From positions 1 to 64,000 of the IMG/VR virus record IMGVR_UViG_3300007072_000008: a stretch of 64,000 nucleotides of DNA; one strand, written 5' to 3'. The stretch is from a virus. The notes under the pieces are model-generated. The model worked only from the letters and a program-made list of their open reading frames with translations, had not been told where the DNA came from and searched no databases. Below, one piece after another: positions 14,061 to 62,924 of the stretch (positions are counted from its first letter, which is position 1; every line of letters starts with the position of its first letter). The position numbers and the translations under genes were made by a program.

Positions 14061-14064
14061 AAAC

Positions 14065-14153
14065 GGAAGCGATAGGATTCGAACCTATGGTGCATCTTTA
14101 TGACACACGGGAGTTTAGCAAACTCCTGCATTAAGCCGCTCTGCCACGCTTCC
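14065..14153 (-). tRNA. tRNA-Ser(GCT)
   Basis: 89 nt with a 7-bp GGAAGCG/CGCTTCC acceptor stem, anticodon stem GGAGT/ACTCC around loop TTGCTAA, a long variable arm typical of Ser, and T-arm GGTTCGAATCC. No CCA encoded. Confidence 0.95.
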
Positions 14154-14202
14154 CAATGTTGATGTAATCACTGAATTAATCAGCGACTGCAACCCTCGGG
14201 AA

Positions 14203-14278
14203 TGCTCCCGACCGGAATCGAACCGGCGATCTCTTCCTTGAAAGGGAAGCGATGTGAGCCAACCACATCTGCAGGAGC
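14203..14278 (-). tRNA. tRNA-Glu(TTC)
   Basis: Acceptor GCTCCTG/CGGGAGC, D-arm GATGT/ACATC, anticodon arm CTTCC-CTTTCAA-GGAAG, T-arm GCCGG-TTCGATT-CCGGT. Its 5' end overlaps the opposite-strand tRNA-Lys-like relic. Confidence 0.9.
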
Positions 14279-14331
14279 TAGATGCACTAGACTTTTAAAT
14301 CTAAGGTCTCCAGGTTCGTTTCTTCTCCCTA
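14268..14331 (+). pseudogene. tRNA-Lys(TTT)-like relic
   Basis: A plus-strand segment aligns with a typical tRNA-Lys from the D-loop on: CACTAGACTTTTAAATCTA anticodon arm, AGGTC variable loop, CCAGGTTCG T-arm start and TTCTCCC acceptor end. It lacks about five T-arm bases and any matching 5' acceptor strand, which has been replaced by the tRNA-Glu gene. Probably a decayed tRNA. Confidence 0.35.
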
Positions 14332-14333
14332 AA

Positions 14334-14411
14334 TACGACGGACAGAATTCGAACCTACAGTGAGTGTTTTTCACTCGGTCACTTTGGAGGCAAATTATAC
14401 TATCGCGTAGA
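14334..14411 (-). pseudogene. Degenerate tRNA-like sequence
   Basis: A T-arm-like GTAGG-TTCGAAT with weak stem pairing and a GAGTG/CACTC hairpin with a five-base loop are recognisable, but the acceptor strands pair over only three bases. Probably a decayed tRNA; identity cannot be assigned. Confidence 0.3.
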
Positions 14412-14415
14412 ATAC

Positions 14416-14488
14416 TGCCCTGCTAGGATTCGAACCTAGAACCTTGGGATCCAAAGTCCCCTGCGCTAACCGATTGCGCCACAGGGCA
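14416..14488 (-). tRNA. tRNA-Gln(TTG)
   Basis: Perfect acceptor TGCCCTG/CAGGGCA. Anticodon loop CTTTGGA (anticodon TTG), T-arm CTAGG-TTCGAAT-CCTAG. Confidence 0.93.
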
Positions 14489-14532
14489 ATTAGAAGAAGT
14501 CAGAGTGCATGATCCTCAGACTGTCTATTAAT

Positions 14533-14600
14533 TAGATCCAATTCGTTTCGAACGAACTGCGGGTTTTCTGCCGCCAATTCGTATAACCGTTGCACAGCAT
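14533..14600 (-). pseudogene. Degenerate tRNA-like sequence
   Basis: A good T-arm (GTTCG-TTCGAAA-CGAAT) and a D-arm-like GTGCAACGGTTATAC are present. The anticodon arm has an eight-base loop without U33, and no 5' acceptor partner for the 3' GGATCTA is visible. Likely a decayed tRNA. Confidence 0.3.
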
Positions 14601-14603
14601 AAA

Positions 14604-14674
14604 CTACCCCACAAGGAATCGAACCCCGACTAAAACGTTCAGAGCGTTTCGTGCGACCATTACACTATGAGGCA
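14604..14674 (-). tRNA. tRNA-Gln(CTG)
   Basis: Acceptor TGCCTCA/TGGGGTA (with wobble pairs), anticodon arm AAACG-CTCTGAA-CGTTT, T-arm CGGGG-TTCGATT-CCTTG. A second Gln isoacceptor beside tRNA-Gln(TTG). Confidence 0.9.
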
Positions 14675-14683
14675 AAAGGATTA

Positions 14684-15350
14684 TTAGTATAATCCATTAA
14701 TATGTAGAACTTTATGACTTACAACAACAGAAGGATTTGCATTACCATTCCAATTTGGGATAAAAAATTCTCTACTAGTAGCTGGTTCTGTAAGTCGTTG
14801 CCAACCTGCTCTGTTTAAAATTTCTTGATATATACGGGAACGAGCATTGTTATGTTTTTTATCCTTATTCCTAAATATATGAGATCTGGTAGCATAATAA
14901 CTAATTTTTATAGGCAACCCATTAATGGACTGAAAAAATTCATACAATTTTGCAACAAGTTGCTCATTCTTTTTGTTAGCTAAATATTTTTTTCCCACAC
15001 GACTATAATCACTTACACCTTCTTTATTAGACCATTCTTGCTCTTCACAATTGCTTTCCCAGCCAAATGAAACATCGCATAACGCAAATGCATTAGAATC
15101 ATCATATAAAGACAATTCAGTATATAATGCTAAATCAATAATACGACATGCATAAGTTGCATATACCCTTCTACGAATGGTATAATCCTCATCGTAATTT
15201 ACTACCTTAGCATTGTTGAATATCTGTTCAAAACTCTTTATGGCTAAATTAATTGCTTGTACAGCATCAACACCTAACTGTCTTGTTGGTAACTGTTTTA
15301 ATCTTGGAGGTAAAAAAGATATTTTTTTTCCATATTTTAGTTTTATACAT
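14684..15350 (-). pseudogene. Hypothetical protein gene interrupted at an A8 run
   Basis: The long C-terminal frame is open from 14684 back to about 15359 but has no ATG or GTG start, only an internal TTG at 15115. The ATG at 15350, nine bases after the upstream gene's stop, begins M-Y-K-T-K-I-W-K-K and meets eight A residues (15322-15329). With seven A's the frame continues I-S-F-L-P-P-R-L-K-Q-L and runs to the end, giving about 222 residues. No family recognised. The lesion is the same kind and direction as in the PAS gene. Confidence 0.7.
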
Positions 15351-15358
15351 ATTGTTAA

Positions 15359-15751
15359 CTATTCCTTTATAATTTGCGCATATACTTTATTTGGGGCCTG
15401 CTTAAAATACTTATTCAGAGCAGGACATAACCATGCTAGGTGACCTGTATTATCTTTGTACCAATACCCTGTCATATCAGATACTTTATTATCCACCAAT
15501 GTTAAAGCAATGGTTGAACCATCAAATGGATTATTGGAAAAAAGTAGCTTTACTTTTTCATGCCCTCCGGCATACTTATCTAAAAGATCATCTGTGCCAG
15601 AAACAAGACCTTCCATTTTAAGGTCTCTTAACTCGTCATCAAAATACCAGAATCGTTCACCTTGACTATTAACAACTTTGTAGGGGTAAATCGTGTAAAT
15701 CATATATGGAATGTGGTTTACTTTTACCGCGAAAATAGCCTTTTTAAACAA
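15359..15751 (-). CDS. Hypothetical protein (DUF6717-like pattern)
   Basis: 130 residues, mostly beta. The pattern I-Y-P-Y-K, W-Y-F-D-D-E-L-R-D-L-K-M-E-G-L-V-S-G-T-D-D-L-L-D is reminiscent of the small DUF6717 family; this is recollection only. It directly precedes the A8-frameshifted gene, in the same orientation. Function unknown. Confidence 0.65.
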   Translation of the reverse strand: MFKKAIFAVKVNHIPYMIYTIYPYKVVNSQGERFWYFDDELRDLKMEGLVSGTDDLLDKYAGGHEKVKLLFSNNPFDGSTIALTLVDNKVSDMTGYWYKDNTGHLAWLCPALNKYFKQAPNKVYAQIIKE

Positions 15752-15780
15752 TATACTTACGGTTCACCACAGTAAGGGAA

Positions 15781-15853
15781 TGGGCGATAAGGGATTTGAA
15801 CCCCTGACCTCTCGGATGTAGACCGAATGCTCTAGCCGCTGAGCTAATCGCCC
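15781..15853 (-). tRNA. tRNA-Val(TAC), unusual C33
   Basis: Acceptor GGGCGAT/ATCGCCC, D-arm GCTC/GAGC, anticodon arm TTCGG-TCTACAT-CCGAG, T-arm AGGGG-TTCAAAT-CCCTT. The base 5' of the TAC anticodon is C rather than the nearly universal U33. Confidence 0.85.
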
Positions 15854-15856
15854 GGA

Positions 15857-15930
15857 TGGAGACGGTGAGAATCGAACTCACAACAGATTGGTTGCAAACC
15901 ATTCTCGCTACCCTTAGCACATGCGTCCCC
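15857..15930 (-). tRNA. tRNA-Ala(TGC)
   Basis: Acceptor GGGGACG/CGTCTCC, anticodon arm AATGG-TTTGCAA-CCAAT (one A-A mismatch), T-arm GTGAG-TTCGATT-CTCAC. The acceptor sequence is typical of tRNA-Ala. Confidence 0.85.
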
Positions 15931-15963
15931 GAAAATACTATTAACTTTTGATAGAGCAGTCTA

Positions 15964-16037
15964 TAGCGGCTCTGGGACTCGAACCCAGCTTGAAAGCTTA
16001 TGAGGCTTTCCAGACCACCATGGCCTTGCCAGCCGCA
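15964..16037 (-). tRNA. tRNA-Met(CAT)
   Basis: Anticodon arm AAAGC-CTCATAA-GCTTT, T-arm CTGGG-TTCGAGT-CCCAG, acceptor GCGGCT/AGCCGC with an unpaired 1-72 position. The anticodon stem lacks the GGG/CCC of initiators, so it is an elongator Met, or a CAU tRNA-Ile if modified. Confidence 0.85.
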
Positions 16038-16041
16038 ATCA

Positions 16042-16086
16042 AATAACAGACAAGTTTTGTTGAGTTAACCATCCAATACTGGTCTG
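16042..16086. terminator. Inverted repeat between gene and tRNAs
   Basis: ATAACAGAC and GTCTGTTAT form a 9-bp inverted repeat with a long AT-rich loop. It could be a weak terminator or a processing stem between the 16135 gene and the tRNA genes. Confidence 0.3.
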
Positions 16087-16134
16087 TTATATTCTCCACA
16101 TACTAACACCCTAAAAACCCTTCTTGTTCACGAT

Positions 16135-16329
16135 TTATTTTTTACTGTTTAAGCTTTTAGATTCTAACAACTCTTTGGCTAGCTCTTCAAGCTCATCTTC
16201 CCATTCATTCATAGCTTTATTATAATCTGAATCTACTTCTTCTGATAATTGTTTTATAGGTCTAAATCTCCATAAAATTTGCATAGCATTTAACTTGCTA
16301 ATTATTTCATCAACCATTTTATCATCCAT
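16135..16329 (-). CDS. Small acidic helical protein
   Basis: 64 residues, strongly acidic and helical (W-E-D-E-L-E-E-L-A-K-E-L-L). No family recognised. Its leader carries the recurring GCGGTAAAAAAA motif followed by an AGAGG ribosome site. Same orientation as the 16358 gene upstream. Confidence 0.6.
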   Translation of the reverse strand: MDDKMVDEIISKLNAMQILWRFRPIKQLSEEVDSDYNKAMNEWEDELEELAKELLESKSLNSKK

Positions 16330-16357
16330 TGATACCTCTGTTCTTTTTTTACCGCAA

Positions 16358-16612
16358 TCACTCTTCTTTAAAAATATTCTCAGTTTGTTCTGGTGTATAT
16401 TTTCGCCTGTTAATAATCTCTTTTATTTTTCTGGCAATAAAAATATGAGTATATGTATGAATCTTAGAATCCTTTTCAATTGTTTCTAAATATTCTCTTA
16501 ACTCCGCTTTTTCCTCTTTAGTTAATTTCTTCTCATTTTCTTTTAAGGAAGATAATGTGGTGGATAAAGCATTATATATCTCTGCCTTTAATGCTTTCCA
16601 AGTTCTACCCAT
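16358..16612 (-). CDS. Small helical hypothetical protein
   Basis: 84 residues, helical, alternating Lys/Glu, with no known motif. It is followed after 28 bases by the 16135 gene and preceded by the 16641 gene in the same direction. Confidence 0.6.
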   Translation of the reverse strand: MGRTWKALKAEIYNALSTTLSSLKENEKKLTKEEKAELREYLETIEKDSKIHTYTHIFIARKIKEIINRRKYTPEQTENIFKEE

Positions 16613-16640
16613 ATTATTTACCAGTCGGGTTAGAGTTAGT

Positions 16641-16970
16641 TTACCACCATAGATTCAGAAAATGCTCAGAAAATAATTTCAAACCACTTTTGACTTCTTC
16701 ATATTCTTTGTTACTTAAATCCCATGCTCCTCTGCTAACTAATTCAAATGTGCGAATCATCTTATCAAGTTTGGCATTCCAGCTTTTTTCAGTTTCTCCA
16801 TAAGGAAATCCTTTACACAATTCTTTAAATCTAACCAGTCTTGGATATACAAATTTGGCAATTGTATAATCTAAACTCCAAGTATCTTGGTCAGTCCAGC
16901 CACGCTCTTTCATTTGCCTTTTAAATAAGGCTTTTCTATTTTCTGATTGTTTTTTACAACTTTTTTTCAT
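16641..16970 (-). CDS. Conserved phage hypothetical protein
   Basis: 109 residues from the ATG at 16970, which shares its A with the stop of the upstream membrane-protein gene (TAATG); the frame is open further upstream but that would overlap the gene there. The pattern W-S-L-D-Y-T-I-A-K-F-V-Y-P-R-L-V-R-F-K-E and E-K-S-W-N-A-K-L-D-K-M-I-R-T-F-E matches a small hypothetical family I recall from many phages. Function unknown. Confidence 0.7.
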   Translation of the reverse strand: MKKSCKKQSENRKALFKRQMKERGWTDQDTWSLDYTIAKFVYPRLVRFKELCKGFPYGETEKSWNAKLDKMIRTFELVSRGAWDLSNKEYEEVKSGLKLFSEHFLNLWW

Positions 16971-17128
16971 TAATACCAAAGTCCTATCATCGCTGTTATA
17001 AGCAGACTTGATAATACTACTACCTTTATAACACCAACAGTTACACATGAATAAAAAATCCAATTGGGAATATAAATACACTTACATCCGTAACTATCTT
17101 TGCAAGCAACACAATTTCTTGATTCCAT
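16970..17128 (-). CDS. Small single-span membrane protein
   Basis: About 52 residues from the ATG at 17128, chosen because AAAGGAG lies just upstream; an ATG eight codons earlier lacks such a site. The N-terminal half has four Cys (C-V-A-C and C-K-C spacing), followed by a hydrophobic C-terminal membrane helix. Holin-like size, but no specific evidence for that role. Coupled to the next gene by TAATG. Confidence 0.6.
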   Translation of the reverse strand: MESRNCVACKDSYGCKCIYIPNWIFYSCVTVGVIKVVVLSSLLITAMIGLWY

Positions 17129-17198
17129 GTTTTCTCCTTTTGTAAGAATCACGTTCCATCTACTTCATTTAGCTATACAAACCCTTATTAAGAATATA

Positions 17199-17390
17199 TT
17201 AAGTTTTTTGCAGACTTTTGGTTTTTTTTATAGCTCTGAAATATGAATTTATAGCTGCTTCTGCCGCTTTAAACTGGCATCTATAGTCTTTTTCAGAAGT
17301 ATAAATAGGATCAGTTTTTTTATCAGGTACTACATAAGCCCTGAATCTTACACCAAAAGGTTTAACTAATTTTTCTAATTTAATATTCAT
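17199..17390 (-). CDS. Small basic hypothetical protein
   Basis: 63 residues from the ATG at 17390, preceded by GGAG. The frame is open further upstream, but that part is a tRNA-like sequence. Basic, with a helical C-terminus (F-K-A-A-E-A-A-I-N-S-Y-F-R-A-I-K-K). No family recognised. Confidence 0.6.
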   Translation of the reverse strand: MNIKLEKLVKPFGVRFRAYVVPDKKTDPIYTSEKDYRCQFKAAEAAINSYFRAIKKTKSLQKT

Positions 17391-17415
17391 AATTTTCTCC
17401 AAATATAATATAAAA

Positions 17416-17474
17416 TGTCCACAGTAGAAATCGAACCGACAATACTTCTGTGATATGCAATTCGCCATGCGGAC
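17416..17474 (-). pseudogene. Shortened tRNA-like sequence
   Basis: The acceptor strands pair over seven bases (GTCCGCA/TGTGGAC) and a T-arm-like GTCGG-TTCGATT is present. The D-arm is collapsed and the anticodon loop lacks U33. At 59 nt it is too short for a normal tRNA, so it is probably decayed. Confidence 0.4.
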
Positions 17475-17489
17475 GTTATTTAAATACAC

Positions 17490-17900
17490 CTATAGGGTTG
17501 AACACATATGCTTTTTATTTCCCAATGTTGCATGGAAAGTTTTTCTCAAGCCTACGGGCGGCTGAATATAAAGGCTTTCATTAGGTAATCCTAACTCTTC
17601 CCTTATTTCTTCTAGCCGCTTTGACCATATATCTATCCAATAATAAACTTCACTATTCCTTATTTCATTACTGTATATAAAATCTACTATTTCCCCCTCA
17701 TACTTTCCCCAAAACTCCATTTTAGGCTCTACAATTTCTTTTCTTACTACAGAAATGTGAGCGTCATACATTTGTCTCTGCAAATAATTTGATATTGATT
17801 TTGGCAGTAGTTTTCTGTAATAATTAACAAGATCCTGTTCTATGTCCAGAACAACATTAGTCTTGCCATATCGAAGTTTTCTTTGTGACTGATAAATCAT
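17490..17900 (-). CDS. 2H phosphoesterase-like protein
   Basis: 136 residues. Two H-x-S/T motifs (A-H-I-S-V-V-R near residue 48 and F-H-A-T-L-G near 124) are the catalytic pair of the LigT/2H phosphoesterase superfamily, which acts on 2',3'-cyclic phosphates, 2'-5' oligonucleotides or cyclic dinucleotides. Several phages use such enzymes in RNA repair or to degrade immune second messengers; the choice here is open. No obvious ribosome site, because the start abuts a tRNA-Arg-like sequence. Confidence 0.65.
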   Translation of the reverse strand: MIYQSQRKLRYGKTNVVLDIEQDLVNYYRKLLPKSISNYLQRQMYDAHISVVRKEIVEPKMEFWGKYEGEIVDFIYSNEIRNSEVYYWIDIWSKRLEEIREELGLPNESLYIQPPVGLRKTFHATLGNKKHMCSTL

Positions 17901-17903
17901 AAC

Positions 17904-17964
17904 ATCGAACCCACTTGTTTCTGTTTAGAAAACAGACGCCTAATCCAGTCTAGCCACAGGAGCA
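17904..17964 (-). pseudogene. tRNA-Arg(TCT)-like sequence lacking its 3' half
   Basis: D-arm and a good anticodon arm (TCTGT-TTTCTAA-ACAGA, anticodon TCT) are followed by GTGGG-TTCGA. The rest of the T-arm and the 3' acceptor are replaced by the start of the 2H-like gene. Probably truncated. Confidence 0.4.
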
Positions 17965-18110
17965 ATGTCTTTCTTTTTTACCGCAACAAACTTGTAAAGC
18001 CCAATAACGGAATCGATCTTACCACGATTGCGTGATACCCTTTTACCAATCTGTCTAAACAAGATGCAGACGGAAAACACGCAGATCAGGTATGCAATTA
18101 CGCACTAACG

Positions 18111-18186
18111 GGTGTGCGACGGGATTCGAACCCGCGAATAACATGAACCACAATCATGCGCGTTAACCAACTTCGCCACGCACACC
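18111..18186 (-). tRNA. tRNA-His(GTG)
   Basis: Acceptor GTGTGCG/CGCACAC with the diagnostic extra 5' G opposite C73. Anticodon arm CATGA-TTGTGGT-TCATG, T-arm GCGGG-TTCGAAT-CCCGT. Confidence 0.95.
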
Positions 18187-18291
18187 AATTATACTTCTTC
18201 ATTATAACTTTACCTGCAAAGGTTGTTACTACACAATATAATAATCAATCGATCTAACTTTTTAGATTTTTTCTCCCGGTTTTGTATACAA

Positions 18292-18450
18292 CTAATATTG
18301 GCCAAGAATATTACAATATCGCCATATTTTAGGGGATGCTATGCTGATTTTTTTTACGGTAAACAACAGCCCTTTCTTGCGTTCTGATGCCCATTGAGGT
18401 TCAAAGACAATTACCTGTCCACCCTGAAACTGTTTCTGTTTTCTGATCAA
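18292..18450 (-). CDS. Small hypothetical protein (uncertain start)
   Basis: About 52 residues, read from a TTG at 18450 because no ATG is in frame downstream of tRNA-Pro. The segment V-I-V-F-E-P-Q-W-A-S-E-R-K-K-G-L-L-F-T-V and P-K-I-W-R-Y-C-N-I-L-G-Q looks like real coding sequence. An ATG six bases further upstream (18454) is in another frame, so a small indel may have displaced the true start. Function unknown. Confidence 0.45.
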   Translation of the reverse strand: MIRKQKQFQGGQVIVFEPQWASERKKGLLFTVKKISIASPKIWRYCNILGQY

Positions 18451-18455
18451 ACATA

Positions 18456-18527
18456 TCGGGGTGACAGGGATCGAACCTGCGACTTCAAGTTCCCAAAACT
18501 TGCGGACTACCTCTGTCCTACACCCCG
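18456..18527 (-). tRNA. tRNA-Pro(TGG)
   Basis: Acceptor CGGGGTG/CACCCCG, anticodon arm CAAGT-TTTGGGA-ACTTG, T-arm GCAGG-TTCGATC-CCTGT. Confidence 0.95.
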
Positions 18528-18581
18528 AACATTGCAAACAATAACAAACACTTTCACCAGATTAGCATCCCATAATTCAAG

Positions 18582-18653
18582 CTCGCAGAGCAGGATTCGA
18601 ACCTGCGACCATTCGGTTAACAGCCGAACGCACTACCGCTGTGCTATCTGCGA
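18582..18653 (-). tRNA. tRNA-Asn(GTT)
   Basis: Acceptor TCGCAGA/TCTGCGA, D-arm GCAC/GTGC, anticodon arm TTCGG-CTGTTAA-CCGAA, T-arm GCAGG-TTCGAAT-CCTGC. Confidence 0.95.
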
Positions 18654-18654
18654 A

Positions 18655-18727
18655 AGCCAGAGGGGGGACTCGAACCCCCGGTTACGGGTTTACAAAACCC
18701 GCGCTGTAGCCGCTGAGCCACTCTGGC
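18655..18727 (-). tRNA. tRNA-Thr(TGT)
   Basis: Acceptor GCCAGAG/CTCTGGC, anticodon arm CGGGT-TTTGTAA-ACCCG, T-arm GGGGG-TTCGAGT-CCCCC. It follows tRNA-Asn with only one base between. Confidence 0.95.
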
Positions 18728-18835
18728 ATTTCACATTCTAGTGCCTCTTTCATGCTATAATATTTCTTTGATTGAGCAATTATCTTTTCCGACAAGGTAA
18801 ATTGCAACAATTTTATTCATAGTAGTTTCCAAACA

Positions 18836-18908
18836 AGACCAGGGTGGGATTCGAACCCACGTATAGTGGATTTGCAATCCACTTCCTTAGCCACTCGGAC
18901 ACCTGATC
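18836..18908 (-). tRNA. tRNA-Cys(GCA)
   Basis: Acceptor GATCAGG/CCTGGTC, anticodon arm GTGGA-TTGCAAA-TCCAC, T-arm GTGGG-TTCGAAT-CCCAC. Confidence 0.93.
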
Positions 18909-18914
18909 GTACAA

Positions 18915-18986
18915 TAGGCTTAAGTGGAGTCGAACCACTAATTGTTTCTTATCAGGAAACTGGTATAACCGTTTACCTATAAGCCT
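18915..18986 (-). tRNA. tRNA-Ile(GAT)
   Basis: Acceptor AGGCTTA/TAAGCCT, anticodon arm GTTTC-CTGATAA-GAAAC, T-arm AGTGG-TTCGACT-CCACT. First tRNA of the minus-strand run, just downstream of repeat module copy 1. Confidence 0.93.
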
Positions 18987-18997
18987 ATGGTAACTTA

Positions 18998-28425: not shown

Positions 28426-29364
28426 ATGGGTGGTAGTAATATGTCTTTTTTTAGATACCCAGGTGGTAAATCTAAACTTCGTGATGAGATTGCAAAGTGT
28501 TTGTTTGAACAAGCCGATCATAATGGTTTGCAATACCGTGAGCCGTTCTTTGGTGGTGGCAGCATTGGTCTGAAACTACTTCAAGATAATCCAGATATTA
28601 AGAACATTTGGATCAATGACAAAGACATAGGCATTGCGTGCCTGTGGACATCTGTAATTAGATACATTGATGATTTCAAAGACCGTGTTAATGATTTCAA
28701 GCCGTCAGTAAAAGCATTCCACGAACTAAAAACGGAATTGCAATCGCTGACAGTGATACCAAAGCAAAAAAGCAAGATCGTTGAGATTGGCTTTAAGAAA
28801 TTAGCGATACATCAGATTTCGTATTCAGGGCTTGGAACTAAATCTGGTGGCCCGCTCGGTGGAGAGAACCAAAAGTCCAAATACAAAATCGACTGTCGCT
28901 GGTCGCCAAAATATATCTGCAAAAAGGTGGATTATCTTCATGCCCAATTTGCTGGCATTTCGGTTCAAGATGAGGCTTGCACTAATTTGGATTTCGGTGA
29001 TTTAATCACTGCGAACACCCACGACAGTCTGATTTATTTAGACCCACCTTATTTTGTTAAAGGCAATGACCTTTATCAGCACGGGTTTACCGAAGCGGAT
29101 CACCGCCGACTTGCCGATCTATTGAGAAAGTGCAAACACTCTTGGGTGTTGTCGTATGATGATTGCCCAGAGATACGTGAATTGTATGTTTGGGCTGATT
29201 TCCATTCGCTTAATGTGAAATACAGCATTACCGCCAACAAAGATGACGAAACAGGGGAGAGAACTTCAAGAACGAAGCCAGAGTTGTTGATTTACCCCAA
29301 GAAGAAGGAACTTAATGATGTTAGAGATGCAGCAATACACACCGTCGCAGGTTCAACCAGTTAA
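28426..29364 (+). CDS. DNA adenine N6-methyltransferase (D12/Dam class)
   Basis: 312 residues. F-F-R-Y-P-G-G-K-S-K at residues about 8-17 (SAM-binding motif I), P-F-F-G-G-G-S-I-G near 40, and catalytic D-P-P-Y near 206 (I-Y-L-D-P-P-Y-F) define the Dam/D12 family. It methylates adenine in a short target, probably protecting DNA from a nuclease. Start at 28426 preceded by AGAAGGAC; an in-frame ATG at 28441 is an alternative. It overlaps the next gene by 50 bases, suggesting a methyltransferase-nuclease pair. Confidence 0.92.
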   Translation: MGGSNMSFFRYPGGKSKLRDEIAKCLFEQADHNGLQYREPFFGGGSIGLKLLQDNPDIKNIWINDKDIGIACLWTSVIRYIDDFKDRVNDFKPSVKAFHELKTELQSLTVIPKQKSKIVEIGFKKLAIHQISYSGLGTKSGGPLGGENQKSKYKIDCRWSPKYICKKVDYLHAQFAGISVQDEACTNLDFGDLITANTHDSLIYLDPPYFVKGNDLYQHGFTEADHRRLADLLRKCKHSWVLSYDDCPEIRELYVWADFHSLNVKYSITANKDDETGERTSRTKPELLIYPKKKELNDVRDAAIHTVAGSTS

Positions 29365-38612: not shown

Positions 38613-40472
38613 ATGCCTCGTAAACCCATTGTAACTATTGGATCGCTCTTAAAAAGTACGGAAAAAATAATTGTTCCGTCACAAACAGACATTCCCTATA
38701 TTCCCAGCATTACTGAATTTTGCGAAAGTCCTAATTATTTAGCATTGTCATTACCTCTATACCCAATACAAAGGTTAATGCTTAGAGCTTTTTACAGAGG
38801 CACGGTTGGCAATACTGCACCCGAATGCATAAATTTAACAGAAGAGGAAATGCGATTATGTAAAGAGTGTGGTTTAGACAATGAAAAAAATGGCAATGTC
38901 ATTAAAAAATGGCACAGTGGCGAAACTTTTCGAGAACTGGTATTGGTATGGGGTAGAAGAAGTGGAAAAGATTATTGTATTAGTATTATTGCTTTATATG
39001 AAGCAATGAAATTGTTAGAATGTCCTGGTGGTGATCCTTATGCTTACTATAATATTGGTAACGCTAATCCATTTACTATTTTAGCTATAGCTAATAACAA
39101 GGCACAAACTCGCATTTTATATACTGAAATATTCGGTAAATTTAAAGAAGCTCCATATTTTAGAGATAAATATTTACCTGAAGGTATTACTAATGATCGT
39201 ATATGTTTGTTAACCCCCAAAAACAAAAAAGATAATGAGCAATTAATCAGCCGTGGGTTGCCCGCACATCCCGGTTCAGTACAAATAGAAACAGGACATT
39301 CTAACTCAAACGGATTAGTCGGAAAAAGCTGTTATGTACTTATGCTAGACGAAGCAGCAACATATAAAAGATCAGGGGGTCCAGGATCGGATGAACAGCT
39401 ATATGGGAATTTATCTCCTACTACAAAAACATATGTCCATGTGGAAGAAATTAAAGACGAAAAGGGCAATGTTATAGATAAGAAAGTCAGCTATGATGGT
39501 AAAATCATAAGCATTTCTTCACCAAGAGGTATGGATGGTGTTTTCTATAGAAGATATAAAGCAGCCGAATCTACACCTAGTATGCTTATGTGTAGATTGC
39601 CTACATGGTTAGTATGCCACATGCACACGGAAGAAAGGCTTCGCAAAGAAGAACAAACTATGACGGATGAAAAATTCCGCATGGAATATGGGGCAGAATT
39701 TAGTGGAACAGAAGGTGAAAACTTCTTTGATCCCGATTTGGTTGAAATATGTTTTAATTCTCATTCATATAAAATGAAAGAATACGGAGAACCTGGAATA
39801 ACCTATTTCGCACACCTCGATCCAGCGGTTAGTAGCCATAATTACGCCTTAGCGGTGGTTCATAAACATCCTTTTATTAATGTAGAATCCAAAAAAATGG
39901 ACTATCATATAGTTTTAGATCATATGGCAATTTGGACACCCGAAAAAGGTAAACCTATTAATATTAATGTTGTAGATGAGTATGTGATAAATCTTAATAA
40001 ATTATTTAGGCTAGGATTGGTAACATATGACCACTGGAACAGTCAGTCTAGTATCGAAAAGCTAAAAAAGAATGGTATCCCAGCACTTTGTACTCCATAT
40101 AACAAACGATATAAAATTAGAATATATGATGAATTAGAACAATTAGTGAATACTGGAAGGTTAAAATTACCATTTTTTAAAACATTAAAATTAGAAATGC
40201 TTAATTTGCAAAGGCGTTATTTGCATACAGGCTATCGGATATATCCAAAGACTGATGGTGAAATTCGAACTGACGATACAGTTGATGCTTTGGCAGGTGC
40301 TTGCTATAATGCTCTTAATAAAGAGATAAATCGATTGCCACAATCGCGTTTGGCTTATACAGGTTCAGTGCCTTCTAGTGCTATGCATCATTGGCAATCA
40401 ATGTCAGGCATGTATTATGGATATGGAACAGGAACGCAAGTTTTAAATAAATTAAACCATTTAAAAGGGTAG
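38613..40472 (+). CDS. terL: Terminase large subunit
   Basis: 619 residues. ATPase: Walker A G-R-R-S-G-K-D at 114-120, Walker B Y-V-L-M-L-D-E-A-A near 245, coupling motif S-I-S-S-P-R-G near 305. RNase H-like nuclease: H-L-D-P-A near 402, T-Y-D-H-W-N-S near 470 and R-T-D-D-T-V-D-A-L near 565 supply the acidic residues. It translocates and cuts concatemeric DNA into proheads at the portal. No intein or intron. First packaging gene of the block. Confidence 0.95.
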   Translation: MPRKPIVTIGSLLKSTEKIIVPSQTDIPYIPSITEFCESPNYLALSLPLYPIQRLMLRAFYRGTVGNTAPECINLTEEEMRLCKECGLDNEKNGNVIKKWHSGETFRELVLVWGRRSGKDYCISIIALYEAMKLLECPGGDPYAYYNIGNANPFTILAIANNKAQTRILYTEIFGKFKEAPYFRDKYLPEGITNDRICLLTPKNKKDNEQLISRGLPAHPGSVQIETGHSNSNGLVGKSCYVLMLDEAATYKRSGGPGSDEQLYGNLSPTTKTYVHVEEIKDEKGNVIDKKVSYDGKIISISSPRGMDGVFYRRYKAAESTPSMLMCRLPTWLVCHMHTEERLRKEEQTMTDEKFRMEYGAEFSGTEGENFFDPDLVEICFNSHSYKMKEYGEPGITYFAHLDPAVSSHNYALAVVHKHPFINVESKKMDYHIVLDHMAIWTPEKGKPININVVDEYVINLNKLFRLGLVTYDHWNSQSSIEKLKKNGIPALCTPYNKRYKIRIYDELEQLVNTGRLKLPFFKTLKLEMLNLQRRYLHTGYRIYPKTDGEIRTDDTVDALAGACYNALNKEINRLPQSRLAYTGSVPSSAMHHWQSMSGMYYGYGTGTQVLNKLNHLKG

Positions 40473-50230: not shown

Positions 50231-53200
50231 ATGCCAATTAAATTTTCAATGCCTGATAGTAGTCCTTCTGGAAAACGTAAGATATCTAATGCTAAAGGTT
50301 TACAACCGGATACACCTTTAACATCAAAAAGTTACGTCACTTCTGGTAGTGCTTATTTACCTATTACAAGAACATCGCAGTTTTCTGGGTATGGCGCAAA
50401 TGTAGCTATATCTCAGCCAATGTTTTTTTCGCCTATGTTTACTCCGCAATCTTGGCAGATTGCTAGTAGGCGCAAAGAGATTTATCAATGGCTGTTTATA
50501 AATCCTTGTGATGTAATGACTGAAGATTATACTTATTCAGGATTAACCGACATCTCGTTTGATTATAAAAAGGTTGTACAAGATACTTTAACTGGTGGGG
50601 TTTTATTTGAAGGTATTGATTATCCACCAATTATGGACAGTGAAGGCAATTTTAGAAAACCGCCACGATATTCAGAGAGAGAGTGTATAAATAAAAGAAT
50701 ATTTAAGTTTTATGCCATAGGCTATTGGAGAACAGTATCTATTTCTGAAGAGCATTATATTTTTGTGCTTGATGGTAGTGAGGGATTGATTAAACGCACT
50801 ATGTCATGTAATGTGAGTTCTAATGACTATTTATTAACACCAGTTCCTCATGTCGGTAATAAGTCTGTAGATAAAGATATGGCATGGCTTATTGGGCTAT
50901 TAGCTACAGATGGTTGTTTGTCAAAATCAGCTAGTGGCTCATATGCTGTACGCATTCCAGAACATTTACAAAAAGTTGTTGATGCTATATGGGGGCAACA
51001 GTGTGGAAATAACAATGTTTGGAGAGTAGATAGTGGACATGTGTGGGAAACAATTAAAGATTTTATTGTTTTAAATAATAAACACAGTTCAAAGAAATTT
51101 ACTAATTTTATTGCTCAGTTAGACAGAGAAAGTAGGTTGCATTTAATTGCAGGGTATTTAGATGGGGTTGGAAGTTTTGATGAAACAGGTGACATAGTAG
51201 TTAACATCAGTTCTTGTGATTTGTCGGATCAGTTATATGCATTGTTGTTATCAACTGATATTGTATGTAGTTTAAATAAAGTTCCTCTGCATGGGGGAAA
51301 TTATGCTTGTGCTACAAATTCGGAATGGTTTTATCGTATATGTATCCATAATTCCGAAGTGCATAAGATTGCTCCTTATATAAAGGGAGATAAAACGCCT
51401 TTTAATCAGCCAGCAAATTTAAAAAGAGGGCTAAGATTTTTTTATGAAAATAGTGGTATTAAGTACCTTTGTTCTCCTATCGCTAAGATAGAACAATTTT
51501 ATTATAATGGTAAGGGTTTTGATATTGAAATGACCAATGAGCGACATGCATTGGTTGCCGGTGGATACATTTGTTCTAATTCTAGGTTTTACTATGAGAA
51601 TGAACCCAAAGTAGCCGCTGGTGTAGATTTCTATAGTCAATTCCCGCTTTCGGGTTTTGTATTAGAGTGTAAAGATAAAAAGGTTTTATCCTATTTTGAA
51701 CAGATGGTTGAAGAATTAAGACTAGCCAATTGGTTACGTCTAATAAGTCATGAATATTTTTTATTAGGTGATGTATTCCCATTTTTAAGTATAGAGTGTC
51801 CACATTGTTCTGGTACTGGTATCAAACCCAATGGTAAGCCCTGTAATCATCCAGATGGTAAATTTAAGAGCATAACGGTACTAAATCCTGATTTTATAGA
51901 AGTTACAGATTCTCCGTTTCCTGATCAAAGACAAATATATTTAATACCTGATGAACAATTGCGCAAAACGGTATTAAGTAAAGAACCAAAGAATATATAT
52001 GATCGTATTCCTGATCAATTAAAGAAACTGATTGCATCTGGCCAAAACATTTTATTATCTCCACGTTCAGTCAGCCATATTAAGCATAGTGAATGTCCCT
52101 ATGGTAAATATGGCGTTTCTATGTTGCGCAGACTGTTTCATCCATTAGCTTATAAAACCAAGTTAATGACTGCAAATTGGATTGTGGCTGAAAGGTTAAT
52201 ATTACCAGTAAGAGTTATAAAGATTGGGGATAAAGATCGTCCTGCGGGTCCAGATGATATTGCGGATATGCAGCAGCAAATATCAGCATTGGCTAATGAT
52301 CCCAATTTAACTATAGTTACTCATCACGCTTTTGAGTATGATTATATTGGGGCTACTGGCAAAATACATAATATCACTTCTGAGTTAGAATATATTGGTA
52401 AAGAATTGTTAGATGGCTTAATGTTAAATCAAGCATTGTTGAATGGTGAAATGAGCGGATATGCATCTGCACAAGTAGGTATTGAAACATTAATTAAAAG
52501 ACTGGAGACCTGGCGTGCTACTTTATCAGATTGGATATATGAACATTTATTTAAACCTACAGCAATGATGCAGGGCTTTATAGATGAGGAAGCGACTAAA
52601 GAATTGGGTAAAACCAAATATTTATATCCAACTATTAAGTTTAATGATATGCAACTTAGAGATAAGACTAATAGGTTGCAAATGTTTATGCAATTGCACG
52701 ATAAGGGCTTAATTTCTACTGAAAAGTTATTAGAAGAATTTGATATCGACTATGATCAAGAAATGATTAGGATACGTAGACAACAGGTAATGTCATCGCC
52801 CGGTGGTCCTAGCGTAGGGGGCACTGGAGGAATAGCTGGCGGTGCTGGTGGCGGTATGCCTGTTATGGGTGGTATGGATATGATGGGTGGGCCACCGCCT
52901 GGTGGTGATATAGGCGGAATGCCTGGTGGGGATATGGGTGGCGGGGCTGGTGGTGCATCACCTCCTATGGGGGCGGCGGCGAGTTCCCAAAAAGTTTATA
53001 AGAAGGGGAAAGCTCCTAAAGCTAAAGACCATGAAATTAAAATGGTTGCTCCCTCTTTCGTGAAGCTTACTAGATTAGAACAGAAAACTTTAGGGATTAT
53101 ACAAGAATTACAGTTACCGTTTAAGTTGTATGGGCAATTTCAAAAGAAATTACCAGGAGAGCCTCAACCATTTGTTATGGATTTTGCTATGCCAGAAATA

Positions 53201-54583
53201 ATGGTTAATATCGAATGTTTACATCCAGATCAATTGGTTTCAACTGTTAATGGATCATTACCGGCATGTACCATTCAAGAAGGGGATAAATTAATAGGAC
53301 AAAACGGGGATGAAGTTGTTGTAGAAAGAAAAATAATTAATTTATGTACACATAACTTATTAAGTATAAAAGTTCTCGGGCATTTGCCTATTCATGTAAC
53401 AAAAAATCATCCTATGTTGGTAGCGAAGCCTAAAAAAGTGTCTAGATTGTCTGTTGAGCCAAATACAACCAGATATAGAACATATGTTGAACCAGGGGAT
53501 ATTTCTTTTATAAATGCTGATGAAATAAAAGTTGGCGATTTTTTGATGATGCCAAAATTTAAAACCGACACAATCGTAGAGCAAATAGATTTATCAGATT
53601 GTAACAAAATCGCCCCGAAAGGTAGTAAAATTTTACCCGATTCAATTGAAGCCACAGAAGAATTAGGCTGGCTTTTAGGGGTATATTTAGCAGAGGGTTG
53701 TTCCGATACAAATGGTTCTAATGTTGTATTTTCTTTTAATATTAATGAAATTGAATATGTAGAAAAAGTGCAGCTATTATTGAAAAATATATTTAATTTA
53801 GATTCAAAACTATATCATAATTTAACTGATCATTGCGCCAGAGTTAGTGTATCGAGCCATATTTTAGCTAGTTTTTTGCATAATTCATTTGGTCAGCATA
53901 CACATCTTAAAAAGCTTCCAAAATGGATATATCAAATGCCTGATATATTTATTGTTGGATTTGTGAGGGGATTTTTGGGAAGTGATGGTTGTGAAAATTT
54001 AAATATTATTCAAAGATATATATCATCTTCAGTGGCTTTATTGATGGATCTGCAAAGGCTTTTGACCAGATTGAACATTTTTGCCAATTTATGCCAATCT
54101 AGGTCACAAGGGACAGTCAATGGTTTGTGGGAATTAACCATATATTCGAATGTGCAGGAAAAGCAATTCTATGAAGATAATAATTATTTTTATATGCCAG
54201 TAAAAACGATTATTGAAATTCCATACACAGGCGATGTTATTAATTTTACTACTTCTGGTGTCAAGGAATCTAATCATACTTATTGCGTTGGCAATTTAAT
54301 TTCTCACAACTGCGACGGGGCCATATGGCATGAGCAGGAGGGTGCTAAAGAGCGTGATGCTGAACGTGATCGGAAATTAGCTTCTTATGGTTGGAGAGTG
54401 TTACGATTTACCGAACAGGCAATTAATCAAAATGCAGATCAAGTGAAGCAATTAATATATGAAAATGTGAAAGAGGCCGCTGAAGAACATTTTCATAGAA
54501 GGAAAACCGCAAGTTCTGTTGAAAAAATTACTAAACATGCTAGTGAGATAGATCACAACACAGATTTAGATGATAAATCGTGA
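50231..54583 (+). CDS. Portal protein fused to a DUF559-like nuclease domain, carrying two inteins
   Basis: 1450 codons; 727 residues after removal of both inteins. The portal part (R-K-E-I-Y-Q-W near 82; F-Y-Y-E-N-E-P-K-V-A-A-G-V-D-F-Y; G-S-L-free helical crown) runs to about the Gly/Met-rich linker near 860-915. A Vsr/DUF559-like domain follows: Y-G-Q-F-Q-K-K, F-V-M-D-F-A-M-P, V-N-I-E then C-D-G-A-I-W-H-E, R-D-R-K-L-A-S-Y-G-W-R-V-L-R-F. The portal forms the DNA channel. Why a nuclease is attached is unknown. The C-terminus has K-T-A-S and K-H-A-S. Confidence 0.85.
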   Translation: MPIKFSMPDSSPSGKRKISNAKGLQPDTPLTSKSYVTSGSAYLPITRTSQFSGYGANVAISQPMFFSPMFTPQSWQIASRRKEIYQWLFINPCDVMTEDYTYSGLTDISFDYKKVVQDTLTGGVLFEGIDYPPIMDSEGNFRKPPRYSERECINKRIFKFYAIGYWRTVSISEEHYIFVLDGSEGLIKRTMSCNVSSNDYLLTPVPHVGNKSVDKDMAWLIGLLATDGCLSKSASGSYAVRIPEHLQKVVDAIWGQQCGNNNVWRVDSGHVWETIKDFIVLNNKHSSKKFTNFIAQLDRESRLHLIAGYLDGVGSFDETGDIVVNISSCDLSDQLYALLLSTDIVCSLNKVPLHGGNYACATNSEWFYRICIHNSEVHKIAPYIKGDKTPFNQPANLKRGLRFFYENSGIKYLCSPIAKIEQFYYNGKGFDIEMTNERHALVAGGYICSNSRFYYENEPKVAAGVDFYSQFPLSGFVLECKDKKVLSYFEQMVEELRLANWLRLISHEYFLLGDVFPFLSIECPHCSGTGIKPNGKPCNHPDGKFKSITVLNPDFIEVTDSPFPDQRQIYLIPDEQLRKTVLSKEPKNIYDRIPDQLKKLIASGQNILLSPRSVSHIKHSECPYGKYGVSMLRRLFHPLAYKTKLMTANWIVAERLILPVRVIKIGDKDRPAGPDDIADMQQQISALANDPNLTIVTHHAFEYDYIGATGKIHNITSELEYIGKELLDGLMLNQALLNGEMSGYASAQVGIETLIKRLETWRATLSDWIYEHLFKPTAMMQGFIDEEATKELGKTKYLYPTIKFNDMQLRDKTNRLQMFMQLHDKGLISTEKLLEEFDIDYDQEMIRIRRQQVMSSPGGPSVGGTGGIAGGAGGGMPVMGGMDMMGGPPPGGDIGGMPGGDMGGGAGGASPPMGAAASSQKVYKKGKAPKAKDHEIKMVAPSFVKLTRLEQKTLGIIQELQLPFKLYGQFQKKLPGEPQPFVMDFAMPEIMVNIECLHPDQLVSTVNGSLPACTIQEGDKLIGQNGDEVVVERKIINLCTHNLLSIKVLGHLPIHVTKNHPMLVAKPKKVSRLSVEPNTTRYRTYVEPGDISFINADEIKVGDFLMMPKFKTDTIVEQIDLSDCNKIAPKGSKILPDSIEATEELGWLLGVYLAEGCSDTNGSNVVFSFNINEIEYVEKVQLLLKNIFNLDSKLYHNLTDHCARVSVSSHILASFLHNSFGQHTHLKKLPKWIYQMPDIFIVGFVRGFLGSDGCENLNIIQRYISSSVALLMDLQRLLTRLNIFANLCQSRSQGTVNGLWELTIYSNVQEKQFYEDNNYFYMPVKTIIEIPYTGDVINFTTSGVKESNHTYCVGNLISHNCDGAIWHEQEGAKERDAERDRKLASYGWRVLRFTEQAINQNADQVKQLIYENVKEAAEEHFHRRKTASSVEKITKHASEIDHNTDLDDKS
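50507..51580 (+). mobile_element. Intein 1 (LAGLIDADG homing intein) in the portal
   Basis: 358 residues from Cys93 (N-P-C-D-V-M-T-E-D-Y) to Asn before Ser (Y-I-C-S-N / S-R-F-Y-Y). Blocks: T-V-S-I-S-E-E-H-Y near the TxxH position, dodecapeptides W-L-I-G-L-L-A-T-D-G and L-I-A-G-Y-L-D-G-V-G, and a C-terminal F-D-I-E-M-T-N-E-R-H-A-L-V-A-G-G-Y. The penultimate residue is Ser rather than the usual His; the +1 nucleophile is Ser. The N-terminal boundary is my best estimate. Confidence 0.8.
53216..54310 (+). mobile_element. Intein 2 (LAGLIDADG homing intein) inside the nuclease motif
   Basis: 365 residues, from Cys (E / C-L-H-P-D-Q-L-V) to Asn (L-I-S-H-N / C-D-G). It shows block B H-V-T-K-N-H-P-M, dodecapeptides W-L-L-G-V-Y-L-A-E-G and F-V-R-G-F-L-G-S-D-G, and a standard V-I-N-F-T-T-S ... 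N-H-T-Y-C-V end. After splicing the junction is V-N-I-E-C-D-G-A-I-W-H, between two residues of the nuclease acidic motif. Confidence 0.93.

Positions 54584-56981: not shown

Positions 56982-56985
<4 letters not shown>
55039..56985 (+). CDS. Large structural protein of unknown function
   Basis: 648 residues. Contains G-W-A-W-G-A-E-K-A-Y, F-T-P-V-V-A-P-V-G-G-G-F-G-L-F and F-A-P-G-R-R-M-F-L-L-D-S-P-N-D-P, then a helical C-terminal region ending in an Asn/Asp/Val repeat (D-D-V-D-D-V-D). It overlaps the protease gene by four bases. Head or connector protein by position. Confidence 0.65.

Positions 56986-62924
<5,939 letters not shown>

What the first reader, a model, noticed from the sequence alone, without database searches (positions are those of the whole stretch)
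50231..54583. Portal protein fused to a nuclease, with an intein inside the nuclease motif
After splicing, the C-terminus reads D-F-A-M-P ... V-N-I-E-C-D-G-A-I-W-H ... G-W-R-V-L-R-F, the DUF559/Vsr-type core. Intein 2 sits between the Glu and Cys-Asp-Gly. Inteins usually occupy conserved functional sites, so the domain was probably active and under selection. A nuclease at the portal could trim or sense DNA ends or attack host DNA on entry. I know of no standard portal with this addition.
Basis: partly seen in the sequence, partly recalled or inferred. Interest (0 to 1): 0.82.

Follow-up and report, generated by a model that had tools for sequence, protein, structure and literature searches.

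The report
Phage portal with built-in DNA-cutting domain
A whole lineage of large, uncultured phages carries an apparently intact DNA-cutting domain on the inward-pointing end of the portal, the ring through which DNA enters and leaves the virus head; no phage in the reference collection searched has this, and its function can be tested directly.

Summary
ORF 50231-54583 is a tailed-phage portal (relative of Bacillus phage G gp14, about 30% identity) followed by a ~110-residue Gly-rich linker and a C-terminal DUF559/Vsr-type nuclease. Two inteins interrupt it; the second sits between catalytic Glu and (Cys)-Asp-Gly. It is not a frame error or oddity: of 101 distinct portal ORFs fetched, 74 carry the domain in frame; close relatives without it run off a contig end or are frameshifted, and 19 distant phage G-like portals lack it. 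Catalytic D and E are invariant (74/74), constraint resembles the portal core, and the two trees largely agree, so this is an inherited enzyme, not a roaming homing gene. No such fusion was found in 50,697 phage records. The terminase keeps its own nuclease, so the portal domain does not replace it. Homology puts the domain beyond the crown, inside the head. Function is inferred: DNA processing at the portal during packaging (precedent: portal-bound T4 endonuclease VII), about 40%. Also, this gene is an intein hotspot (51 of 80 ORFs, up to four each), and the window's first intein belongs to a group lacking the usual first-residue nucleophile.

The parts
50231..54583 (+). Whole gene: intein-bearing portal-nuclease fusion, 1450 aa (722 aa if both inteins splice out)
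50231..50491 (+). N-terminal portal extein (residues 1-87, ends YQW)
50492..51580 (+). Intein 1 (site A), 363 aa, LAGLIDADG type by eye, first residue Leu, last two Ser-Asn, +1 Ser
51581..52789 (+). Portal core (residues 451-853)
   Evidence: phrog_16240 to residue 794, tblastn to phage G gp14 residues 452-852; portal fold of relative L013
52790..53056 (+). Gly/Pro/Met-rich linker, predicted disordered in relative L013
53057..53215 (+). Nuclease domain, first part (T-x-x-E, Q, DFA, catalytic E995)
53216..54310 (+). Intein 2 (site E), 365 aa, canonical class 1 ends, LAGLIDADG_3
54311..54481 (+). Nuclease domain, second part (C-D-G, H, D..RD..L, GW..R)
38613..40472 (+). Terminase large subunit with its own intact ATPase motifs and nuclease Asp triad (context)
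56982..62924 (+). Large ORF whose N-terminal part matches head maturation protease phrog_18299 (context)

Best explanation
The gene makes a portal subunit whose C-terminus, beyond the crown, carries a DUF559/Vsr-type nuclease on a long flexible Gly-rich leash; both inteins are expected to splice out to give a 722-aa protein. A ring of (by portal homology) twelve such subunits would hold about twelve nuclease domains at the inner mouth of the DNA channel. The most likely role is processing of the phage's own DNA at the portal during packaging: cutting branched, recombination-derived or otherwise abnormal DNA, or dressing ends, comparable to T4 endonuclease VII (gp49) bound to the T4 portal gp20, but fused instead of recruited and of an unrelated nuclease fold. 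Shown here: fusion, intact motif, fold, constraint, vertical inheritance, intact terminase nuclease. Inferred: splicing, oligomer state, location in the head, catalysis, substrate.
For: 74 portal ORFs carry the domain in frame, each close relative with a complete 3' end has it. 16 invariant residues in 42 aligned domains including the D / E-x-D-G / H / D set; D621 and E632 invariant in 74 of 74. dN/dS of close pairs 0.01-0.09, like the core. Core and nuclease distances agree (Mantel r 0.76, 0 of 2000 shuffles; 29 of 68 splits shared, shuffle mean 0.2). Nuclease fold matches I-Bth0305I, NGO0050, PvuRts1I and Vsr. Terminase nuclease intact, so this is an additional activity. Precedent of a portal-bound resolvase that releases stalled branched DNA (PMC9958956, PMC10893049). 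No known resolvase family over cut-off in ten clade records, versus RuvC in phage G and T7 endo I in another outgroup (weak).
Against: If the C-terminus sits inside the head, as in P22, it faces packaged DNA and not the entry side where branched DNA stalls; a free-acting nuclease there would threaten the genome. The resolvase absence is weak: records may be incomplete, two of the family searches lacked a positive control, and host enzymes could serve. No activity or structure is measured.
Confidence: 0.4

Rival explanations
1. Ejected nuclease: the head maturation protease encoded nearby cuts the linker, freeing the nuclease into the head, from where it is injected with the genome and cuts host or competing phage DNA.
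For: A head maturation protease match lies just downstream; the linker is long, Gly-rich and predicted disordered; the expected location inside the head would suit a cargo protein (inference).
Against: No conserved cleavage site was identified; the domain is always kept fused rather than encoded as a separate internal head protein.
Confidence: 0.2
2. Non-catalytic tether: the fold is kept to bind or order DNA at the portal, not to cut it.
For: Would explain how packaged DNA survives next to about twelve nuclease domains (inference).
Against: Catalytic D and E never vary in 74 sequences; a pure binder would be expected to lose them somewhere.
Confidence: 0.16
3. Captured homing endonuclease: a Vsr-like homing enzyme fused to the portal gene and still acts, or recently acted, as a selfish element.
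For: Best structural match is the homing endonuclease I-Bth0305I; this gene already hosts many inteins.
Against: Present in every complete close relative and inherited with the portal, whereas homing genes are patchy; the domain is itself the target of an intein, as conserved host sequence is.
Confidence: 0.12
4. Packaging-cut helper: the domain makes or trims genome ends together with the terminase, for example at a specific packaging site or end.
For: A portal location is where packaging is terminated (general knowledge); the domain is an addition to an intact terminase.
Against: Terminase keeps the full Asp triad and would suffice; the expected location inside the head is the wrong side for cutting the concatemer (inference).
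Confidence: 0.12

Closest known systems
Bacillus phage G gp14 portal and related large-phage portals (phrog_16240)
   Same: Portal core aligns over its length at about 30% identity
   Different: Phage G-like portals (about 550-670 aa in most cases) have no nuclease
DUF559 (PF04480) / REase_MTES_1575 nucleases, e.g. Neisseria NGO0050 (3hrl)
   Same: All 42 domains match both profiles; same fold and motif order
   Different: Known members are not parts of portals as far as found here
I-Bth0305I and Vsr endonucleases
   Same: Same catalytic fold: 3r3p target TM 0.77-0.81, Z 12.4; Vsr 1cw0 Z 10.8
   Different: Intron homing enzyme and mismatch repair enzyme respectively; low sequence identity
T4 endonuclease VII (gp49) bound to portal gp20
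   Same: A nuclease stationed at the portal (PMC9958956, PMC10893049)
   Different: Separate protein and, from general knowledge, a different nuclease fold; here a fused domain after the crown
P22 portal C-terminal barrel
   Same: Lineage-specific C-terminal addition beyond the crown, inside the head (PMC5290284)
   Different: A helical barrel, not an enzyme
Mja KlbA class 2 inteins
   Same: No Cys/Ser at position 1, Ser at the penultimate position, and Cys+1 in most group members
   Different: First residue Leu/Glu/Asp/Lys/Gln/Met rather than Ala; in phage portals; the window copy has Ser+1

Membership tests
Tailed-phage portal | Portal family profile match | tested here: met
   phrog_16240 E 1.2e-43; Pfam Portal_Mu above cut-off
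Tailed-phage portal | Portal fold | tested here: met
   Model of intein-free relative L013: residues 76-498 match SaPI1, lambda, T4, SPP1 and G20c portals, Z 10-12; model confidence is low
Tailed-phage portal | Ring assembly in virions | not testable with these tools
   Needs purification or cryo-EM
DUF559 / Vsr-type nuclease | Profile match above curated cut-off | tested here: met
   45.1 bits against cut-off 20.6; 42 of 42 relatives match
DUF559 / Vsr-type nuclease | Intact catalytic residues | tested here: met
   D621, E632 in 74/74; D634 in 72/74, Glu in two
DUF559 / Vsr-type nuclease | Fold | tested here: met
   3hrl Z 13.2, 3r3p Z 12.4, 1cw0 Z 10.8; Foldseek
DUF559 / Vsr-type nuclease | DNA cleavage | not testable with these tools
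   Needs an assay
Class 1 intein (intein 2) | Cys1, terminal His-Asn, +1 Cys/Ser/Thr | tested here: met
   CLHPDQ...ISHN|C
Class 2 intein (intein 1) | No nucleophile at position 1, Ser penultimate | tested here: met
   Leu1...ICSN
Class 2 intein (intein 1) | Cys at +1 | tested here: not met
   Window and L062 have Ser+1; the other eight of the group have Cys+1
Class 2 intein (intein 1) | KlbA orthologue with Ala1 | tested here: not met
   Leu1 in a portal gene; definition from PMC4031507
Homing endonuclease | Sporadic distribution independent of host gene | tested here: not met
T4 endonuclease VII-like packaging resolvase (works like, not a member) | Endonuclease_7 profile match | tested here: inconclusive
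   No match in 16 records, but the control genomes did not ring either; the portal domain matches DUF559 instead
T4 endonuclease VII-like packaging resolvase (works like, not a member) | Branched-DNA cutting at the portal | not testable with these tools
   Needs an assay

The most novel reading that the evidence does not exclude
A widespread lineage of large phages has built a catalytically active nuclease into the portal ring itself, on the inner side of the head, as a fixed part of genome packaging or delivery; I found no earlier description of such a portal.
Probability: 0.55. Interest if true: 0.85.

Novelty: new variant of a known kind. Interest (0 to 1): 0.74.

Why it matters
Portals are treated as gates and pressure sensors. 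An enzyme kept on the portal through dozens of diverse lineages implies a DNA-processing step at the packaging vertex that standard phages do with separate proteins or not at all. The same gene is a natural collection of inteins at about a dozen sites, including a group without the usual first-residue nucleophile, which is useful for studying splicing chemistry.

Tried and rejected
Replacement of the terminase nuclease: rejected, its Asp triad is invariant with and without the portal nuclease. Obligate pairing with a D12 DNA methyltransferase: not supported, no match in 4 of 10 clade records. Frame error or chimaeric assembly: rejected (one contig, L057/L158, is broken up by frameshifts). Second nuclease copies: each of 10 clade records has the portal copy, one has one more DUF559 elsewhere, no outgroup record has one over cut-off. 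Hosts: the genome-contig scan found no relative. Single-sequence scans with the window portal and terminase found nothing; alignment-based scans worked. AF2 of the full portal is poor (mean pLDDT 57.9), so only its portal fold match and the separate nuclease model are used. Literature: the one held paper with both 'portal protein' and 'DUF559' is unrelated; DUF559 papers found concern other subjects; the huge-phage survey PMC7162821 does not mention inteins. Class 3 mechanism for intein 1: block F keeps Asp rather than Cys, so not supported. Intein 1 starting instead at Cys93 would leave five extra residues (LFINP) in a gapless conserved portal segment, so not favoured.

Full report
Observation. 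The window is 64 kb of a 73,277-base IMG/VR virus record. ORF 50231-54583 is open throughout. It matches portal families and DUF559. Aligning it with the phage G, LR745208 and Rctr197k portals shows a gapless join of W87 to residue 451, giving intein 1 as residues 88-450; intein 2 is residues 996-1360. Taking both out in silico raises the DUF559 score from 32.6 to 45.1 bits, as expected for an intein inside a real domain.

Relatives. Two alignment-based scans of viral contigs gave 80 loci each, partly the same contigs; some lie on contigs of 476 and 494 kb, so these include large phages. A portal profile and a nuclease profile run over all six frames give 101 distinct portal ORFs, of which 74 carry the nuclease in the same frame. 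Of the 27 without, six run off the contig end, two are pieces of one frameshifted contig and 19 are distant phage G-like portals. tblastn of the window portal and of an intein-free relative against 50,697 phage records finds the portal core only, at about 32% identity or less; apart from an intein-bearing Eggerthella phage portal whose match extends into the intein, nothing beyond the core matched in the listed rows. The nuclease alone finds only weak, partial hits to other nucleases, none under a portal annotation among the rows listed.

Activity signature. Forty-two aligned domains share T, E, Q, DF, E-x-DG, H, D..RD..L, GW and R. Over 74 sequences D621 and E632 (spliced numbering) never vary and D634 becomes Glu twice; the other departures listed look, on reading the printed sequences, like misalignments in one subclade or an intein cut by a contig end (L146). 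The closest pairs show dN/dS of 0.01-0.09 in the nuclease, like the core (more distant pairs are saturated). Core and nuclease distances and trees agree far beyond shuffles, with four well-supported conflicts, two of which involve the window's nuclease grouping with L046, so some recombination within the clade is possible.

Fold and place. The nuclease model (pLDDT 83.6) matches I-Bth0305I, NGO0050, PvuRts1I and Vsr. The full-length model is poor overall, but residues 76-498 match entire known portals, so the linker (median 110 residues, 33% Gly) and the nuclease are additions after the crown. In P22 that direction is into the head; that this holds here is inference.

Mechanism. The terminase keeps its own nuclease. 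Ten clade records show no match over cut-off to RuvC, RusA, RecU, Hjc or T7 endonuclease I, whereas phage G has RuvC and another outgroup has T7 endonuclease I; endonuclease VII and A22 searches had no positive control. This is a hint only, since records may be incomplete and unknown resolvases would be missed. T4 shows that a nuclease held at the portal can be needed to clear branched DNA during packaging. I therefore put DNA processing at the portal first (0.4), ahead of an ejected nuclease (0.2), a non-catalytic tether (0.16), a homing relic (0.12) and a packaging-cut helper (0.12).

Inteins. 51 of 80 clade portal ORFs carry inteins, up to four, at about a dozen sites. Site E in the nuclease is filled in five, plus L146, with Cys at +1 in the five mapped, where intein-free relatives mostly have Ala, Thr or Val. 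Site A inteins, the window's intein 1 among them, fall mainly in two groups. Ten have Leu, Glu, Asp, Lys, Gln, Met or (one) Ser first, end Ser-Asn, and have +1 Cys (eight) or Ser (window, L062). Lack of a first nucleophile with Ser at G:6 and Cys+1 is the class 2 pattern, described in 2014 as confined to KlbA orthologues with Ala1 (PMC4031507). Whether the window's Leu1/Ser+1 version splices is open; if it does not, the window's portal would not mature normally, but the nuclease finding rests on the relatives as well.

Noticed in passing
50492-51580 (intein 1) and site A inteins of L027, L059, L062, L077, L116, L118, L123, L145, L152: Inteins at YQW|(S/C)RF whose first residue is Leu, Glu, Asp, Lys, Gln, Met or Ser, ending Ser-Asn and mostly followed by Cys: looks like a new class 2-like group.
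   Followed up: partly
L050, L056, L120, L140, L146, L149, L161 (site A): Second group at the same site starts with Ser or Cys and ends in Gln instead of Asn.
   Followed up: no
L056, L059, L062 and one more ORF: Portal ORFs with four inteins each, 1802-2051 aa for the three named.
   Followed up: partly
window portal, residues about 521-541, and relatives: Conserved C-x2-C-x-G-x-G ... C-x-H pattern inside the portal core, zinc-finger-like, absent from phage G gp14.
   Followed up: no
28426-29364: D12-type adenine DNA methyltransferase; multiple copies in some relatives.
   Followed up: partly
56982-62924: 1980-aa ORF: head maturation protease-like N-terminus followed by long Asp/Glu/Asn-rich low-complexity stretches.
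   Followed up: no
14064-18987, minus strand: Thirteen tRNA genes in two clusters.
   Followed up: no
L065 portal ORF (1016 aa) and L083 (874 aa): Outgroup portals with long C-terminal extensions that do not match this nuclease.
   Followed up: no
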